From: a virus | Length of the DNA stretch: 37,294 nucleotides | IMG/VR virus record: IMGVR_UViG_3300030450_003059 | Span: 1-37,294 of that record | Strand: one strand, 5' to 3' | Shown: positions 15,024 to 26,279 of the stretch, one piece after another | Numbering within the stretch: position 1 is the first letter of the stretch | Layout: every line of letters begins with the position of its first letter | Notes under the pieces: model-generated | The model's database searches: none | What the model was told of the DNA's origin: nothing | Seen by the model: only the letters and a program-made list of their open reading frames with translations | Translations under genes and position numbers: made by a program

Positions 15024-15146
15024 AAACCGCAATCCCTGCGAAGCGTTGGAAAATGGTGCCTGGGGCCGGACTCGAACCGGCATGAGGTATTGCCTCGAGG
15101 GATTTTAAGTGTCTAGCAAGTGAGGCGCAAGAAGGGATTGCGGTTT
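15024..15146. repeat. Perfect 14-bp inverted repeat framing the attP core
   Basis: AAACCGCAATCCCT at 15024-15037 is exactly the reverse complement of AGGGATTGCGGTTT at 15133-15146. The two arms are 95 bases apart and enclose the tRNA-identical core. It could be an integrase or excisionase site, or a large stem in an RNA crossing the att region. Confidence 0.75.
15054..15109 (-). other. attP: attP core identical in form to the 3' half of tRNA-Leu(UAA)
   Basis: On the minus strand this reads from the anticodon loop (CTTAAAA, anticodon TAA) through the anticodon stem (TCCC), the long variable arm (GAGG-CAATA-CCTC), the T arm (GCCGG-TTCGAGT-CCGGC) and the acceptor strand to CCA. There is no 5' half of the tRNA: the sequence before the anticodon loop no longer pairs, so this is a tRNA fragment, not a tRNA gene. 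Such fragments are the identity blocks with which tyrosine-integrase phages replace the 3' end of the host tRNA gene. It lies just downstream of the integrase gene, as usual. Confidence 0.85.
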
Positions 15147-17129: not shown

Positions 17130-17318
17130 ATGAACACCGCAATGCAAAGTCAAGATTTAATAGAGAGCCCAGAAGCTGCAAGGATCCTTGGCATTACAGT
17201 GGATCAGCTTCGAAGGCGTGTGAAGAACGGGAAAGTGATTCCCATTATTAGAAAGAGAAATATTTTACTCTTTTCCAGGAAGGAACTGAGTGACTCCATT
17301 TCAAAAGAGAATCCTTGA
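17130..17318 (+). CDS. xis: Excisionase / MerR-like HTH DNA-binding protein (62 aa)
   Basis: A 62-residue winged-helix-type protein with the pattern IESPEAARILGITVDQLRRR and VKNGKVIPIIRKRNILLFSR, which is the signature of the small helix-turn-helix family that includes excisionases (helix-turn-helix, a wing, then a strand). It is the first gene rightward of the divergent promoter, opposite the repressor and integrase operon, which fits a directionality factor for excision. It could equally be a transcription regulator, since these folds overlap. No ribosome binding site precedes the ATG at 17130; an in-frame ATG at 17142 is possible. Confidence 0.65.
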   Translation: MNTAMQSQDLIESPEAARILGITVDQLRRRVKNGKVIPIIRKRNILLFSRKELSDSISKENP

Positions 17319-17688
17319 ACTAGGATTCACTCACCGGGAGTTCGCGAGGCAGCTAGGACAGCCCAGGTCAACAGTCTCGGCATGGATCAACGGAGCCAGG
17401 AAGATTCCGAAGCTTCATGTCAGAAACTTTGCGCTTTTGCTCGATATTCCGGTAAGCGAAGTCTGGGATTGGAACAAGACCTTTGGCGAAAATATTTCTC
17501 GTCGCGAGCACATGGAGCTCGCAAGGAAATCGGCACACCGCCGGTATGCGAAGGTGACCAGGAAGGACATTGATGATGCTGTATCAAAGTATCTGGCAGC
17601 CGGCGGTACGATTAAAAAATTAGAAGATGGTCCGGAGAAGTCCCGGATCGAAAAAGAAATTGACGACATAGGAGGTCTATCAAAATGA
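17290..17688 (+). CDS. XRE-family HTH regulator, Cro-like (132 aa)
   Basis: The N-terminal 60 residues carry a clear lambda-repressor-like helix-turn-helix: THREFARQLGQPRSTVSAWI followed by NGARKIPKLHVRNFALLL. It starts with GTG at 17290, with AGGAAGGA upstream, and overlaps the preceding gene by 29 bases. The C-terminal part (70-132) is basic and helical with a Gly-Gly turn (LAAGGTIKKLEDG) and has no recognised domain. As the second gene of the early operon it could act as Cro, binding the operators near 17027-17119, or as an activator of later genes. It ends four bases into the nuclease gene. Confidence 0.7.
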   Translation: MTPFQKRILELGFTHREFARQLGQPRSTVSAWINGARKIPKLHVRNFALLLDIPVSEVWDWNKTFGENISRREHMELARKSAHRRYAKVTRKDIDDAVSKYLAAGGTIKKLEDGPEKSRIEKEIDDIGGLSK

Positions 17689-21732: not shown

Positions 21733-22192
21733 CGTCCTCGAGCAGCTGGAAGACATGGAAGCTCCTTCAGTCAAAGATGTCACTTTGGTAGAGTATCGAA
21801 GGCAAGTCGCCGGGATCTCTCAGTTCTGGTGGACGGCCTATCGTCACGCCGATCCAGCGATCCAAGGTCAGTGTGATCGGATCATGCGTGAATGTCACGT
21901 TGAAGGAGTCCCGGCTGATGATTGTTGTAGAAAGTTTCGAGAGTTACTCTTAGAGGCCCATCCGCTCGCCAAGACGGGTTCCCTGGAGAACTCCGACCAA
22001 GCGGATGAGCAGCGAAATATACAACGGAATACGCTTATTCCCAGCCTCCCAGTGGTAGAGCATCATGTGGTCGGAGAGTCCCAGGAGGCGAGCGAACGAG
22101 CGGATCGAGACACCCAGACGTTTACGAGTCTCGCGGAGCTCCTCCGGGGTCATCCGGATCGGCCCGTCCTTGATTCTTCCACCACGGATTAA
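21494..22192 (+). CDS. Helicase-loader-like replication protein, P-like (232 aa)
   Basis: Residues 20-100 carry the typical pattern of lambda P-type loaders and related replication proteins: LLEVWEDTLSLLLESYSEERVLEAATRAQ then SHFPQPSNVLEQLED. In such proteins this helical region holds DnaB or the initiator. No helicase gene is seen in the window, so it would recruit host DnaB. The start is ATG 21494, with AAGGTAGAG before it. The last 80 residues, from about AHPLAKTG, lie antisense to an HTH gene and read as possible frameshadow; the true stop could therefore be earlier than 22192. It overlaps the O-like ORF by 239 bases in a different frame. Confidence 0.75.
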   Translation: MQVEKEHSNIQAIAKPTELAKKILKKFNAPRTKPIQVTPDLLEVWEDTLSLLLESYSEERVLEAATRAQMRTSHFPQPSNVLEQLEDMEAPSVKDVTLVEYRRQVAGISQFWWTAYRHADPAIQGQCDRIMRECHVEGVPADDCCRKFRELLLEAHPLAKTGSLENSDQADEQRNIQRNTLIPSLPVVEHHVVGESQEASERADRDTQTFTSLAELLRGHPDRPVLDSSTTD

Positions 22193-22255
22193 GTGTTGTG
22201 GGTCACGTTCATCCATCGGATCCACCTGGTCGTGACCTTGTGTGTGTGTGGTCAT
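21950..22255 (-). CDS. HTH regulator of the leftward operon (101 aa)
   Basis: A compact helix-turn-helix protein. The core MTPEELRETRKRLGVSIRSF and ARLLGLSDHMMLYHWEAGNK has the two helices and the W-E-x-G turn typical of phage XRE-like regulators in the same class as those with a DPQHLIRGGRIKDGPIR preface. The start ATG 22255 lies directly before a (CA)n tract (MTTHTQG); an alternative ATG at 22216 would follow a GGTGG box and give 88 residues. It is the last gene of the leftward operon, transcribed towards the O/P genes and overlapping the P-like 3' end in antisense over 243 bases. It may switch between leftward accessory and rightward replication transcription. Confidence 0.65.
   Translation of the reverse strand: MTTHTQGHDQVDPMDERDPQHLIRGGRIKDGPIRMTPEELRETRKRLGVSIRSFARLLGLSDHMMLYHWEAGNKRIPLYISLLIRLVGVLQGTRLGERMGL
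22239..22250 (-). repeat. (CA)n tract 4, start of the HTH gene
   Basis: An alternating CA run of 12 bases on the minus strand, directly after the HTH start ATG (codons Thr-Thr-His-Thr). A one-unit change would shift the frame from residue 6 on. Confidence 0.8.
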
Positions 22256-22293: not shown

Positions 22294-22358
22294 CCTCAAG
22301 TGTCCTTGAGGTGATGGGCCTCGGGCTTGAGCTTTGCCGAGCGTTTGAAAGCCCGAGG
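22294..22358 (-). promoter_or_regulatory. Degenerate hairpin module with nested CGGCAA loop and masked AAGGACA
   Basis: On the minus strand a 10-bp stem CCTCGGGCTT...AAGCCCGAGG (22319-22358) contains GCT-CGGCAA-AGC. It is followed by CCTCAAG-GACA-CTTGAGG (22294-22311), a perfect 7-bp stem holding AAGGACA, the Shine-Dalgarno form used in this operon. No gene starts within reach. On the plus strand the 10-bp stem is followed by TTTTCC and could terminate rightward transcripts from the O/P genes. Confidence 0.5.
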
Positions 22359-22369
22359 TTTTCCATTAG

Positions 22370-22783
22370 TTAGTATTTTTTGTTTAGTGGGATGATCCTC
22401 TTTCCCATTTTCTTCAGAACCTTGACAGCCCTTCGGGCGTAGTCCTGGGCGCACTTCCCAGCACAGAACTGACCTTCATCCAGCCATCCGAATCCAATCA
22501 GATCATTGTAGTCTGAACGGGCCCGGATCCCATCATCAGCCTTGATGATTTCCTCGACTTCTTCACCCCATCCATTGAGCTTAGTCTCGACACTTTCCGG
22601 AGTCGGATCCTGAACCTGGACCAAGACCTGGTAGAATTTGGCGGTTAGTTGTTCCCCACAATGGAGACAATGGGGGCGTTTGTCTTTCCACTCTTCATAG
22701 AAAACACTCCGGGAGACTTTCTGTTCTTCCCGGGTTAGTACACACTTTTCCTTGTCCCTTGGGTTTATCAAATAATAATTCAT
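22370..22783 (-). CDS. Unknown protein with two Cys pairs (137 aa)
   Basis: A 137-residue protein with HCLHCGEQL (residues about 39-47) and FCAGKCAQDYAR (about 107-118), so two CxxC-like pairs for a zinc site. Charged helices connect them. The start ATG 22783 follows AAAGGAAAAC. It lies after a short gap with an imperfect palindrome at 22812-22832 and before the degenerate hairpin module. It belongs to the leftward accessory operon. No enzymatic motif is seen; nucleic-acid binding is possible. Confidence 0.6.
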   Translation of the reverse strand: MNYYLINPRDKEKCVLTREEQKVSRSVFYEEWKDKRPHCLHCGEQLTAKFYQVLVQVQDPTPESVETKLNGWGEEVEEIIKADDGIRARSDYNDLIGFGWLDEGQFCAGKCAQDYARRAVKVLKKMGKRIIPLNKKY

Positions 22784-22811
22784 ACTGTTTTCCTTTCATG
22801 TTCGTTTTTTC

Positions 22812-22832
22812 CCGACCTAAGGCTTAGCTCGG
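22812..22832. promoter_or_regulatory. Imperfect palindrome between two leftward genes
   Basis: CCGA-C-CTAAG-G-CTTAG-C-TCGG, 21 bases, with a symmetric C/C mismatch around a central G. It fits a protein-binding palindrome or a short hairpin. No T run follows on the transcribed strand. Confidence 0.45.
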
Positions 22833-22833
22833 A

Positions 22834-23172
22834 TTATTCGTTGTGCCAGTAAAGCTGCCCGTTATCGTCGATCATCCGCTCGGTTCGGATCTCGTCCTCG
22901 TCGAGCTTGTCCCGGATGTCACGTTCCTCATCTTCGTCAACCAACCAAGCTTCAATCTCTTCGAATTGCATTAAAAAACTTCGAAGGTTTTTCTCGGTCT
23001 GCTCGTCGGCAAACTCCATGTCCTCGATCGGGGTCGGGTTCAGCCAGTCCGGCTCGCCATCGGTAAAGGTCGGAAAGCCGATCCAGTCGCATTCCGCATC
23101 ACTCCAGACATAAGAATGCCCGTCATTCTCGTTATAGATTACAGTTGCTTTAGTTTTCATTTTGATTTTCAT
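22834..23172 (-). CDS. Unknown acidic protein (112 aa)
   Basis: An acidic protein of 112 residues. The start was set at ATG 23172, one base after the stop of the GP88-like gene (TAAAATG), so the genes are translationally coupled. The first residues MKIKMKTKATVIYNENDG are basic, then the charge turns acidic (WLVDEDEERDIRDKLDEDEI), and it ends GQLYWHNE. Trp-rich sites (WSDAECDWIGF) suggest a small beta-sheet domain. No family recognised. Acidic proteins of this size in phage accessory operons can be DNA mimics, but nothing here proves it. Confidence 0.6.
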   Translation of the reverse strand: MKIKMKTKATVIYNENDGHSYVWSDAECDWIGFPTFTDGEPDWLNPTPIEDMEFADEQTEKNLRSFLMQFEEIEAWLVDEDEERDIRDKLDEDEIRTERMIDDNGQLYWHNE

Positions 23173-23173
23173 T

Positions 23174-23812
23174 TTAATGCCTCGGATAGCTGACATTGAT
23201 CACGCCAGGATCCCAGCACCGCCGGCAGTCCAAGCATTGATTTTTTTGACTCTTTGCCGGGCATGTCCAGCCTCGAGTCACTACAGTCGATGTGCCGAGC
23301 CCGTACTTGCGAGCAAGCTTCTCCGGACCTGGTTCGTTGATCATATGGGCGGATAATCGGATCATAAGATTTGCCGGGCATGTGACCTGGTTCAAAACCT
23401 TCGAAACGATCCGATATTCCCGGGTCGGTAACCAATGCCGAACGTGTGGAGTGAGCTCGCAAACTTTGATGATGCGCTTTAACATGCGCTCGCTTTGCAG
23501 GTCTCCGGAGTCAAGCCAGCGGAACCAGGTTTCGCGTTCGAGGCTCTTCACCATCAAATCAATCCAGGCAACGCCGGTGCGTTCGAACCTGGCTTGTCGT
23601 CGGTTCTGCGCGTTCTGGACGTTGTCGAAGCCGTACCGGCCTTTTAATGCATAACATGAAGAGCAAACCGAGCCCTCGATCTTTCGAAGCTTTGCGCCGG
23701 TCTTGCAATTCCTGGCTGATATTGACCAGCCGGATCCCGGCATTTTGCCAGGGTTCGAGAGTCCACCGACTAAAACCTGGGCCTCTCCTGGTGTTGTGAA
23801 TTCATCAAGCAT
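23174..23812 (-). CDS. GP88-family protein (212 aa)
   Basis: Strong match by eye to the family named after mycobacteriophage L5 gp88: CKTGAKLRKIEGSVCSSCYAL, KGRYGFDNVQNAQNRRQARF, FRWLDSGDLQSERML, VRHWLPTREYRIV, LMIRLSAHM and a C-terminal CPAKSQKNQCLDCRRCWDPGV, ending NVSYPRH. There are at least eight conserved Cys in three groups, which suggests an iron-sulfur or zinc core; an enzymatic role is not known to me. The start was placed at ATG 23812 with AAAGGAC six bases before it, so the family motifs begin near residue 20. The upstream gap holds a two-hairpin module. It is translationally coupled with the next gene. Confidence 0.85.
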   Translation of the reverse strand: MLDEFTTPGEAQVLVGGLSNPGKMPGSGWSISARNCKTGAKLRKIEGSVCSSCYALKGRYGFDNVQNAQNRRQARFERTGVAWIDLMVKSLERETWFRWLDSGDLQSERMLKRIIKVCELTPHVRHWLPTREYRIVSKVLNQVTCPANLMIRLSAHMINEPGPEKLARKYGLGTSTVVTRGWTCPAKSQKNQCLDCRRCWDPGVINVSYPRH

Positions 23813-23836
23813 GTTGTCCTTTTGATGATGGTTTTC

Positions 23837-23902
23837 ATCCGCATTGCCGTGCGGATCCCGATCGAAATGACCAGGCGCGGAGCCTCTCGATTGAAAGGCT
23901 CC
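23837..23902 (-). promoter_or_regulatory. Two-hairpin leader module of the GP88-like gene
   Basis: Minus strand order: GGAGCC-TTTCAATCGAGA-GGCTCC (23879-23902, with CCTGGT/ACCAGG flanks), spacer, then ATCCGCA-CGGCAA-TGCGGAT (23837-23856), then AAAGGAC and ATG 23812. The second stem is a perfect 7-bp stem with a six-base loop. The same loop occurs in other leaders of this operon. The module lies directly after the preceding stop codon. Confidence 0.65.
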
Positions 23903-23910
23903 TGGTCTGA

Positions 23911-24429
23911 TCAATAATCGACTAAGTGTTGCCTAATCGCTCCCTGGTCGTCGCTTGGAAAATAATCATGACGAGCGGAGAAAATCGAAACCGGCTTGCC
24001 GTCATAACGTGGCTCAAGTTGCTGGATCATTTGAACCCGTTCGTCAATGTCCATGCCGGACCAGGTCTCGTTTGCTTCCTCTTCTTCGAGCTCGGAAAAG
24101 TGCATATCATCGATCACCGGATAATTGGAAAGAGCGTTTTCTGTTTCCCGTGCCAGTGTCTCCGCTTCGGATCCTGGTTTGATCGTGAATATTTCGAACC
24201 ATCCGCAAGCCCAATGCCCGAACCGGTGAATCTGCCAGGTGTTGCCCTCGTCCTCGATGTCTTCCAGGTATTTTTGAAAGCATTCGAAGTTCGAACGCGC
24301 CAAGCATCCGGAGTCCCGGTTTTGTGATATTCCAGGGACTAACCACTCGGCTTGATCTTCCATGTTGTGATGGATTCCGAGCCCTGGTCGGTCAAAGCCG
24401 GTCGGCTGGTAGTCTTTATATTTTTGCAT
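23911..24429 (-). CDS. Unknown acidic protein (172 aa)
   Basis: A 172-residue protein. The start was fixed at ATG 24429 because AAAGGAGG lies three bases before it, and the stop of the preceding gene overlaps it (TAATG). Conserved-looking segments are HHNMEDQAEWLVPGISQNRD, ARSNFECFQKYLED and HWACGWFEIFTIKPGS; the last looks like a folded beta core with Trp, Gly and Phe. The C-terminal third is acidic. It belongs to a protein family I have seen in other environmental phages but cannot name. Followed by the two-hairpin module before the GP88 gene. Confidence 0.6.
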   Translation of the reverse strand: MQKYKDYQPTGFDRPGLGIHHNMEDQAEWLVPGISQNRDSGCLARSNFECFQKYLEDIEDEGNTWQIHRFGHWACGWFEIFTIKPGSEAETLARETENALSNYPVIDDMHFSELEEEEANETWSGMDIDERVQMIQQLEPRYDGKPVSIFSARHDYFPSDDQGAIRQHLVDY

Positions 24430-24821
24430 TATGCCTCCTTTGTTGATTGCTGGTGTGCATGGTGGCAGGATCCGCAAGCGAGAAAATAATCTCGATAGAT
24501 TTCAAAGATGACCTGGTGCTCTTCCTTGTTGCATTTCCTGGTCGCTCCGTCATACCAATCAAGGAAAGCGTACTCGATATGGTGAGCGTTGAACTCCGGA
24601 TCCGTGTAGAAGCGGAATTCATCGCTTGGGCCTCCATAGGAAAGCTGGTATCGAAAATATCCGCTCTCCTGGTCGTTGAATGTACCAGGTGCGACATAAT
24701 CGAAACTAAGCCCGTATTCATGGAATTCTTGCTGATCTTCGGCGTAATACATCCGCTCAAGATCTTTGATGGTATCCGCAAGCATTTTGTCAATACGCTC
24801 TTCGCATGTTGGTTGTGGCAT
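24429..24821 (-). CDS. Unknown protein (130 aa)
   Basis: A 130-residue protein with a helical N-terminus (CEERIDKMLADTIKDLERMY), a Tyr/Phe-rich middle (FRYQLSYGGPSDEFRFY) and a C-terminus with a Cys-His cluster (FLACGSCHHAHQQ) that could bind a metal. Start ATG 24821 with AAAGGACATATC just before, the common leader form in this operon. The stop overlaps the start of the next gene (TAATG). No known domain. Confidence 0.55.
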   Translation of the reverse strand: MPQPTCEERIDKMLADTIKDLERMYYAEDQQEFHEYGLSFDYVAPGTFNDQESGYFRYQLSYGGPSDEFRFYTDPEFNAHHIEYAFLDWYDGATRKCNKEEHQVIFEIYRDYFLACGSCHHAHQQSTKEA

Positions 24822-24849
24822 GATATGTCCTTTCGTTCAGTTGATGGAT

Positions 24850-24926
24850 CCAGCCTTGCCGGGCTGGCCTAGTCTGATTGACCAGGTGCGCCGGCACTCG
24901 AGGGAATGCCGGCTGATCTAGTCAAT
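24850..24926 (-). promoter_or_regulatory. Two-hairpin leader module of the 130-aa gene
   Basis: Minus strand order: ATTGAC/GTCAAT outer pair, GCCGGCA-TTCCCTCGAG-TGCCGGC (24890-24913, perfect 7-bp stem), GCACCTGGTCA, then CCAGCC-CGGCAA-GGCTGG (24850-24867, perfect 6-bp stem), then AAAGGACATATC and ATG 24821. It has the same order of parts as the GP88 leader module and the same hexaloop. Confidence 0.65.
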
Positions 24927-25414
24927 TAGCTGGCAAGTTCTTCAAGATGATCTTGCATGGTTTTCTGGTCTTCTCTCTTGCGTTCCTCGTTGATCAATCG
25001 AGCTCGCTTTGACCAGGGCTCGCCGGTTTCGATCAAATACTGGTCGCTTCGGTAAACTCTGCATTCCAGGTTCGCAGCCTGGGCAAGCTTTGCGTAAATC
25101 TCGGCAAATTCCTTGCGGAGCTTGTTTTCTATGCTCCTGGACTGCCAGCGGTCCGCGTTCGGATCGTCGATCATGGAAGGAACGTAGCCGTGATCAATAT
25201 AACGTCCGAGCAGTTCCTCGATGCCGTGGTGATAGACCAGCTCGAGCTCTTGCATAATGTAGTTAGCGTGATCCAGTAAGGCGTTGAGCTCGTTGTGCTG
25301 GTCCGGATGGGATTCCGTGTCCAGGCGTTCGATGAACATCTCAGCATACTTTAAAGCCTCGTTGGTTCCGGTTGGGGCTTTGCCGAGTCGATATTTTGAA
25401 ATAATTGCGTACAT
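24926..25414 (-). CDS. Unknown helical protein (162 aa)
   Basis: A 162-residue protein, helical and mixed charge, with hydrophobic heptads (ELNALLDHANYIMQELELVY) and a basic C-terminal part (EPWSKRARLINEERKRE). Start ATG 25414 is preceded by AAAAGACATATC, the same leader form as the 130-aa gene but with one base less suited for Shine-Dalgarno pairing. The 26-base gap before it has no hairpin. No family recognised. Confidence 0.55.
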   Translation of the reverse strand: MYAIISKYRLGKAPTGTNEALKYAEMFIERLDTESHPDQHNELNALLDHANYIMQELELVYHHGIEELLGRYIDHGYVPSMIDDPNADRWQSRSIENKLRKEFAEIYAKLAQAANLECRVYRSDQYLIETGEPWSKRARLINEERKREDQKTMQDHLEELAS

Positions 25415-25440
25415 GATATGTCTTTTCGGATGATGGTTTT

Positions 25441-26196
25441 TTATTCGAACAAACTGAGCTGTTTGCTCTTGTCGTGAATAAACGTGGCCTTGCCGGGCTC
25501 ACGTTCGAAGGTTTGGATCGGAACATCGTCGAGGAACGACGGCTGCACGATCGTTGAAGGAAAGACCGATACTCGAGGGCATCGGATGGGATCCGGTTCC
25601 GCAATTGGTTCCGGGGCTGGTTCTGGATCGGGCTCGACCTGGTCGGACCAGTGATCGATTTCAATCCAGCCTTTTTTGGGTGTGTGGCTGTATTCAATAA
25701 ATAAAGATTTGCTGCGACCTCGACCGCATGAACCGCAAAGATGAGAAGTGATCTTGCCGTCTTCGATCGTGTACTTGTCGAGCTCTTTGCTGGTGATCAC
25801 TGGATCCTCTTTTTCGCATTTAGAACAAAGGATCCAAGCAACTGGGCTCGACCAGGTACAGTCATGGCATCGCTTCGGATCCGCTCCGAGCTCAATCATT
25901 TTGTTTTTCCACTTGGTTCCGTGGTGCGCTCCTGGTGTGAGTGCGTGGGCAATCTCGTGGATGATGGTTTGCTTGAGGTCGTCGGGGCTTGCCGTGAGTG
26001 CATATGGCTCGGTGATGCCTATGATTTGATCCCTGTATCTGCACACACCAGCCCGGCGTGTTGACCTGGTGCGCTCTAGCTTAAATGTCCAGCCGTCAAG
26101 GCCGTGATAGTTCATAAGCTCGGTTGCTTGCTCGATCACCTGGTCCCTGGTGCGTAGCTCTGGATTCAGAAATAAATGATATTCGTTGATTCTCAT
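25441..26196 (-). CDS. SprT-like zinc metalloprotease (251 aa)
   Basis: The active-site motif HEIAH (residues 80-84) followed by GAHHGTKW supplies the third ligand His near 91-92, as in SprT/SPRTN proteins. A CxxC pair at 110-113 and 124-127, and another at 154-157, form the zinc-ribbon that SprT-type proteins carry behind the protease domain. The final 80 residues are Pro/Glu/Asp-rich, with a C-terminal KQLSLFE. Hosts use SprT relatives to cut DNA-protein crosslinks, though a phage function is unknown. It is the first gene of the leftward operon, 17 bases after a CGGCAA hairpin. ATG 26196 has AAGGACA before it. Confidence 0.85.
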   Translation of the reverse strand: MRINEYHLFLNPELRTRDQVIEQATELMNYHGLDGWTFKLERTRSTRRAGVCRYRDQIIGITEPYALTASPDDLKQTIIHEIAHALTPGAHHGTKWKNKMIELGADPKRCHDCTWSSPVAWILCSKCEKEDPVITSKELDKYTIEDGKITSHLCGSCGRGRSKSLFIEYSHTPKKGWIEIDHWSDQVEPDPEPAPEPIAEPDPIRCPRVSVFPSTIVQPSFLDDVPIQTFEREPGKATFIHDKSKQLSLFE

Positions 26197-26214
26197 ATTG
26201 TCCTTGATTCGATG

Positions 26215-26230
26215 AGGGCTTGCCGGCCCT
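26215..26230 (-). promoter_or_regulatory. CGGCAA-loop hairpin in the operon leader
   Basis: On the minus strand AGGGC-CGGCAA-GCCCT: a perfect 5-bp stem with the six-base loop, located between the predicted transcription start and the AAGGACA box of the SprT-like gene. Confidence 0.6.
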
Positions 26231-26240
26231 GGTTCAAATA

Positions 26241-26257
26241 GTATGGATATACCATAC
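26241..26257. promoter_or_regulatory. Palindromic operator overlapping the -10 box
   Basis: GTATGG-ATATA-CCATAC, perfect inverted repeat of 6+5+6 bases. It covers the -10 element of the leftward promoter, the classic position for repression. Confidence 0.65.
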
Positions 26258-26279
26258 GATTTTTCCAGGTCTCAGTCAA
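26251..26279 (-). promoter_or_regulatory. Leftward promoter of the accessory operon
   Basis: On the minus strand TTGACT, a 17-base spacer and TATGGT (plus-strand AGTCAA at 26274-26279 and ACCATA at 26251-26256). The -35 box is identical to that of the rightward early promoter. Transcription would begin near 26244, with the CGGCAA hairpin close to the 5' end of the message. Confidence 0.65.

What the first reader, a model, noticed from the sequence alone, without database searches (positions are those of the whole stretch)
22294..26230. Family of leader hairpins with an identical CGGCAA hexaloop in the leftward operon
Four sites on the transcribed (minus) strand have different stems but exactly the same six-base loop CGGCAA: AGGGC/GCCCT before the SprT-like gene, CCAGCC/GGCTGG before the 130-aa gene, ATCCGCA/TGCGGAT before the GP88-like gene, and GCT/AGC nested in a longer stem after the 137-aa gene. 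Compensatory stem changes with an invariant loop are the mark of a structured RNA element. Each is followed by the same AAGGACA ribosome-binding form, and in three of four by a start codon within about 40 bases. A loop-binding protein or host factor, or an RNA-processing enzyme, could set translation of the genes together. I know of no described element with this loop.
Basis: partly seen in the sequence, partly recalled or inferred. Interest (0 to 1): 0.78.

Follow-up and report, generated by a model that had tools for sequence, protein, structure and literature searches.

The report
Phage leader hairpins, conserved CNGCAA loop
Several genes of a temperate marine phage and its relatives are preceded by small RNA hairpins whose stems keep changing in step while the loop stays fixed, which points to an undescribed regulatory RNA element recognised through its loop.

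Summary
All four CGGCAA hairpins lie on the minus strand, before the blocks of a leftward accessory operon in a podovirus-like temperate phage record. In related contigs the same leaders keep the CGGCAA loop while their stems change with compensation. At the GP88 leader all 24 pairs of a two-hairpin structure are kept in 7/7 phages, 6 of them through double changes. Invariant U-G pairs point to minus-strand RNA. More distant relatives have the same anatomy with another loop: CTGCAA (about 86% terminase identity) or CCGCAA (about 70%). The loop is thus C-N-GCAA, with N fixed per clade (clade 2 rests on two sites). It lies 21-37 nt before the start codon. A second covarying hairpin precedes it at two sites. 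The leaders stay 73-95% identical while unrelated genes replace each other downstream, so the element bounds exchangeable gene blocks. Rfam has no match, and the paper searches found no description. Best explanation: a cis-acting mRNA leader recognised through its loop by a trans-acting factor, co-regulating translation of the blocks. The structure is shown; the partner and the direction of regulation are inferred.

The parts
26215..26230 (-). Hairpin B1 (AGGGC/CGGCAA/GCCCT), leader of the SprT-like gene
   Evidence: covariation in orthologous leaders
24850..24867 (-). Hairpin B2 (CCAGCC/CGGCAA/GGCTGG), leader of the 130-aa gene
23837..23856 (-). Hairpin B3 (ATCCGCA/CGGCAA/TGCGGAT), leader of the GP88-like gene
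   Evidence: 7/7 phages keep every pair
22319..22358 (-). Hairpin B4, nested: GCT/CGGCAA/AGC inside a 10-bp outer stem, after the 137-aa gene
24878..24925 (-). Hairpin A2, two-tier hairpin with 4x4 internal loop directly 5' of B2
23868..23913 (-). Hairpin A3, two-tier hairpin with 4x4 internal loop directly 5' of B3
22294..22311 (-). Hairpin C, holds AAGGACA of site 4 (CCTCAAG-GACA-CTTGAGG)
26199..26205 (-). AAGGACA Shine-Dalgarno form, SprT-like gene
24826..24832 (-). AAGGACA Shine-Dalgarno form, 130-aa gene
23815..23821 (-). AAGGACA Shine-Dalgarno form, GP88-like gene
26251..26279 (-). Promoter-like TTGACT-17-TATGGT just upstream of B1, overlapping the palindrome GTATGGTATATCCATAC (26241-26257)
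   Evidence: consensus match only; palindrome seen in relatives by eye
25441..26196 (-). SprT-like protein gene, 251 aa (block 1)
   Evidence: Pfam PF10263
24926..25414 (-). 162-aa unknown gene (block 1, no leader hairpin of its own)
24429..24821 (-). 130-aa gene (block 2); replaced by unrelated genes in relatives
23911..24429 (-). 172-aa gene (block 2)
23174..23812 (-). GP88-like gene, 212 aa (block 3)
   Evidence: Pfam PF17338
22834..23196 (-). 120-aa unknown gene (block 3)
22370..22783 (-). 137-aa unknown gene (block 3)
21950..22255 (-). HTH regulator gene at the end of the operon, homologues in all three clades

Best explanation
A family of cis-acting mRNA leader hairpins. Each gene block of the leftward operon is headed by a hairpin (B) with a C-N-GCAA hexaloop on a stem free in sequence, then a mostly unpaired linker, a Shine-Dalgarno sequence and the start codon. 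A trans-acting factor, more likely a protein than an RNA, recognises the loop and so sets translation or survival of the blocks together, in the manner of known phage translational operators. Shown here: the structure, its covariation, the strand, the invariant loop, its position and, within the window, its restriction to this operon. Inferred: the factor, its identity (phage or host), and whether it represses or activates. At sites 2 and 3 a second hairpin (A) lies 5' of B; I infer it is a processing or insulation hairpin that leaves B near the 5' end of each block's mRNA, as B1 probably already is, next to the promoter.
For: Orthologous leaders covary: GP88 site 24 pairs, 100% of cells paired in 7 phages, 6 pairs with double changes, slid controls at most 51%; site 4, 95% paired, 5 pairs with double changes; SprT site, 3 pairs with double changes; pooled hairpin B, 84.5% paired against 42% in shuffles and 16.8-32.3% in slid controls (the pooled sites were partly chosen for having a stem). 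CGGCAA ranks first and CCGCAA second among all hexaloops by number of different stems before a ribosome-binding site and start, in 87 relative loci (CCGCAA ties with CTTCGG and AAGAAA at four stems). With the first two loop bases left free, 17/17 distinct clade-1 leaders read CG and 3/3 in clade 3 read CC; a change at all sites of a genome at once, on different stems, argues for a shared trans-acting partner. Loop-to-ATG is 21-37 nt in accepted sites. Within the window, model matches lie only on the minus strand of this operon. Invariant U-G pairs and C-G/U-G changes would be mismatches in the opposite-strand RNA. Control: 121 unrelated CGGCAA..AAGGACA..ATG matches in IMG/VR, none with a stem of 4 bp or more.
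Against: No partner has been found and no binding, expression or probing data exist. Site 4 has no start codon close by and its AAGGACA lies in another hairpin, so a pure translation role does not fit every copy. Not every gene of the operon has the hairpin. Clade 2 rests on two distinct sites and one has an 8-base loop by mismatch (CCTGCAAT), as has one clade-1 site (L128). Some clade-3 leaders have five-base CGCAA loops instead.
Confidence: 0.5

Rival explanations
1. mRNA processing and 5'-end stabilisation without a dedicated regulator: hairpin A is cut by RNase III, as T7 early mRNA is, and hairpin B then protects the new 5' end.
For: Hairpin A has 7-8 bp, a 4x4 internal loop and about 10 bp, and is kept with compensation; B1 is already next to a promoter-like site. 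The resemblance to T7 RNase III sites is from memory.
Against: Protection alone does not explain an invariant loop that changes clade by clade; A is absent at sites 1 and 4, and one clade-2 leader has A without B.
Confidence: 0.2
2. Transcription antitermination site (nut-like or HK022 put-like) that lets polymerase pass terminators in the operon.
For: Tandem hairpins A-B with a conserved loop, repeated along one operon of a temperate phage.
Against: No boxA-like sequence next to the leaders and no excess in the window; no convincing intrinsic terminators in the gaps between blocks; copies sit next to each start region, not only near the promoter; loop is not a GNRNA pentaloop.
Confidence: 0.1
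3. Recombination anchor: conserved leaders mainly serve homologous exchange of gene blocks, like PeSLs of T4-type phages.
For: Leaders 73-95% identical while downstream proteins are unrelated: four different genes at site 2, two at site 3.
Against: Anchoring needs conserved sequence, but stems change while pairing and loop are kept; at most a by-product of a conserved leader.
Confidence: 0.1
4. The loop pairs with an RNA partner (phage or host small RNA complementary to the loop).
For: Loop position 2 varies between clades, as a pairing partner could.
Against: No such partner was identified; this was looked at only by inspecting TTGCCG positions in the window, not searched in host genomes.
Confidence: 0.08
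5. Chance recurrence of a common hexamer.
For: CGGCAA is over-represented in the window (42 against 20 expected).
Against: 0 of 300 shuffles reach three hairpins with one loop; covariation and clade-wide conservation.
Confidence: 0.02

Closest known systems
T4 gene 43 translational operator
   Different: One site, in front of the gene of its own binder; here four or more sites in one operon with different stems, unknown binder, other loop.
PeSLs (promoter early stem-loops) of T4-type phages
   Same: Repeated regulatory stem-loops between accessory genes, linked with shuffling of those genes (PMC4503421, PMC3950731; original papers not held).
   Different: PeSLs pair a promoter with a terminator stem-loop; here sites 2-4 have neither by consensus scan.
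T7 RNase III processing sites (from memory)
   Same: Hairpin A has two stems split by an internal loop between cistrons.
   Different: Hairpin B with invariant loop has no counterpart; no cleavage data.
lambda nut boxB / HK022 put (from memory)
   Same: Small RNA hairpins with conserved loops in early phage transcripts; tandem hairpins in put.
   Different: No boxA, hexaloop C-N-GCAA, several copies per operon close to start codons.
PyrR-binding hairpins, loop CNGNGA (from memory)
   Same: Hexaloop beginning C-N-G read by a protein.
   Different: Loop ends CAA, no pyr genes or purine-rich bulge seen; similarity of letters only.

Membership tests
PeSL | Promoter within each element | tested here: not met
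   promoter-like match only at site 1; none in leaders 2-4
PeSL | Stem-loop is an intrinsic terminator with T run | tested here: not met
   no terminator-like match at hairpins A2, A3, B1-B4
PeSL | Flanking accessory genes exchanged between relatives | tested here: met
Phage translational operator (gp43 kind) | Hairpin upstream of the start with conserved loop | tested here: met
Phage translational operator (gp43 kind) | Specific protein binder that changes translation | not testable with these tools
   No binding or expression data
lambda nut site | boxA next to boxB | tested here: not met
   91 near matches against 99 expected, none next to the hairpins
Any Rfam 15 family | Score at or above the gathering threshold | tested here: not met
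   no match in window and L125-L130
RNase III processing site (hairpin A) | Long double-stranded hairpin between cistrons | tested here: met
   7-8 bp, internal loop, 10 bp
RNase III processing site (hairpin A) | Cleavage by RNase III | not testable with these tools
   Needs RNA 5'-end mapping

The most novel reading that the evidence does not exclude
A new phage post-transcriptional regulon: one RNA-binding protein reads a C-N-GCAA hexaloop on stems of any sequence, its specificity at the second loop base has shifted between phage clades together with all sites of the genome, and any gene block that recombines in behind such a leader comes under its control.
Probability: 0.3. Interest if true: 0.8.

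Novelty: new variant of a known kind. Interest (0 to 1): 0.58.

Why it matters
If true, it gives a plug-in regulatory leader that lets a temperate phage swap accessory genes and keep them under common control, with natural loop variants in sister clades for studying how RNA-protein specificity shifts. Such RNA-protein pairs are also useful tools. It is directly testable with short RNAs.

Tried and rejected
Named phages (Pelagibacter Baldr and HTVC203P, Roseobacter CRP-171, Vibrio 1.262.O and 1.182.O) show no repeated C-N-GCAA leaders; 1.182.O has one isolated site. More distant terminase relatives (68% and below, e.g. L166, L171, L175) had no convincing R1 match. DNA cruciform or opposite-strand RNA: disfavoured by invariant U-G pairs. 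Antitermination: no boxA. Host: not identified; no integrase match in plasmids or phages, and the one genome-contig scan found only distant SprT relatives. Defence-system link of the cargo: no convincing PADLOC match for the window genes. R1 hits in relatives are largely the sequences it was built from, so they are not counted as independent proof; extra low-scoring clade-2 hits at L155 8814-8833 (and copies) are within coding sequence and were discarded.

Full report
What the window is. The record is a 37,294-base IMG/VR virus sequence with small and large terminase matches, head-tail adaptor, major head protein, endolysin, integrase, exonuclease and Sak4-like genes: a temperate podovirus-like phage. 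The finding lies in a leftward operon (about 21.9-26.3 kb) placed between rightward recombination genes and the rightward packaging and structural genes. It codes for an SprT-like protein, a GP88-like protein, an HTH protein and small unknown proteins.

Check of the observation. The four hairpins, their shared loop and AAGGACA are as described. No other hexaloop occurs three times on one strand with stems of 5 bp or more, and 0 of 300 dinucleotide shuffles do so. Every gap of about 98 bases or more between genes of this operon holds one of the hairpins; genes that overlap or lie close together do not. So each hairpin heads a block: SprT + 162 aa; 130 aa + 172 aa; GP88 + 120 aa + 137 aa; HTH.

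Relatives, clade 1. SprT and GP88 searches in IMG/VR gave L125-L130 and L134, terminase gave L149, and DNA patterns from hairpin A gave L269. All carry CGGCAA hairpins at homologous leaders. At the GP88 position stems read ATCCGCA/TGCGGAT, ATCCGGA/TCCGGAT, ATCCGCG/CGCGGAT, ATCCAGA/TCTGGAT and ATTCGGA/TCCGGAT. This comparison follows position, not choice by stem: 24 pairs over two hairpins, 100% of cells paired, 6 pairs with changes on both sides. Site 4 shows inner stems GCT/AGC, GCA/TGC and GTG/CAC around the same loop and three double changes in the outer stem. The SprT site ranges from AGGGC/GCCCT to GATCGA/TCGATC. Invariant U-G pairs and C-G to U-G changes fit the minus-strand RNA; on the other strand they would be A-C mismatches.

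Relatives, clades 2 and 3. Terminase relatives at about 86% (L152, L154, L155, L222) and about 70% (L157-L164) share gene order with the window but lack CGGCAA leaders. Ranking all hexaloops without preference put CGGCAA first (10 distinct stems) and CCGCAA joint second (4 stems, tied with CTTCGG and AAGAAA) by number of different stems before a ribosome-binding site and start. Clade 2 leaders carry CTGCAA (two sites), clade 3 leaders CCGCAA (six distinct sites), and some clade 3 leaders five-base CGCAA. Loop to ATG is 21-37 nt in these sites; three rows of that table on the other strand with much longer or shorter distances (L158 and L159 plus strand; L155 13588) are not accepted as members.

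Controls. 121 CGGCAA..AAGGACA..ATG matches in unrelated IMG/VR contigs have stems of 0-3 bp. The covariance model R1 finds 32 places at 19.6 bits or more in about 1.04 Mb of relatives, all leaders, against one in 0.71 Mb of unrelated contigs; most of the former are its training sequences or copies of them. Rfam 15 has no match.

Second hairpin. Directly 5' of B2 and B3 lies hairpin A: 7-8 bp, a 4x4 internal loop and about 10 bp, with compensatory changes. B1 has instead a promoter-like TTGACT-17-TATGGT just upstream, so B is probably near the 5' end of the primary transcript. One clade 2 leader has an A-like hairpin without B, so the two are separable. That A is a processing site is inference from shape.

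Gene exchange. Leaders at site 2 are 73-93% identical between contigs, yet four unrelated proteins follow (MPQPT..., MSAYL..., MPIQT..., MELLT...); at site 3 leaders are 73-95% identical and two unrelated proteins follow, with unrelated genes before as well. The element stays and the cargo changes.

Interpretation. An invariant loop on freely changing stems, fixed before the ribosome-binding site, limited to one operon and changing its second base at all sites of a clade together, is best explained by a trans-acting partner that reads the loop. A protein acting on translation initiation is the most likely form, by analogy with the T4 gene 43 operator, whose hairpin lies about 40 bases before the start codon and keeps its loop bases (PMC3014915). 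Repression or activation cannot be told. Site 4, where AAGGACA is inside another hairpin and no start is close, does not fit neatly. Paper searches covered open-licence papers only and found no description of this loop.

Limits. The host is unknown, the relatives that carry the element are metagenomic contigs, clades 2 and 3 rest on few sites, and nothing here measures RNA. Confidence is high for the RNA structure, moderate for a loop-reading partner, and low for which process it controls.

Noticed in passing
window 15054-15109: Next to the integrase lies a sequence like the 3' end of a class II (leucine-type) tRNA ending GCCGGTTCGAGTCCGGCCCCAGGCACCA on the minus strand, probably attP. ARAGORN calls no full tRNA; it could be used to find the host.
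   Followed up: partly
window 17290-17688 +: Predicted protein with an HTH_3 domain and a weak match to the SutA RNA-polymerase-binding domain (PF20661, 9e-6 but below the curated cut-off).
   Followed up: no
window 26241-26257: Palindrome GTATGGTATATCCATAC overlaps the -10 of the leftward promoter; relatives have altered but still palindromic forms (GTATGATAATACCATAC in L130), so probably an operator.
   Followed up: no
window 25490-25495 -; L126, L127, L128, L129: Inside the conserved 3' end of the SprT gene AGCC-CGGCAA-GGCT forms a 4-bp CGGCAA hairpin in four relatives (3 bp in the window), upstream of the next gene. Coding constraint (EPGKA) may explain it.
   Followed up: partly
L264 7056-8156, L265 6155-7465, L266 3774-5039: In clade 3 the first hairpin-led gene is not SprT but an AAA_5 ATPase, with a weak Rho_N match in one, followed (checked in L264) by a DUF7192 gene.
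   Followed up: partly
L265, L266 leftward cluster: Other clade 3 leaders carry hairpins with a CTTCGG loop before an ATCGGAGAATGA ribosome-binding form.
   Followed up: no
L230 28171-28176 +: Vibrio phage 1.182.O has a single 7-bp CGGCAA hairpin (GCTCTG/CAGAGC core) just before the annotated gene NVP1182O_40.
   Followed up: no
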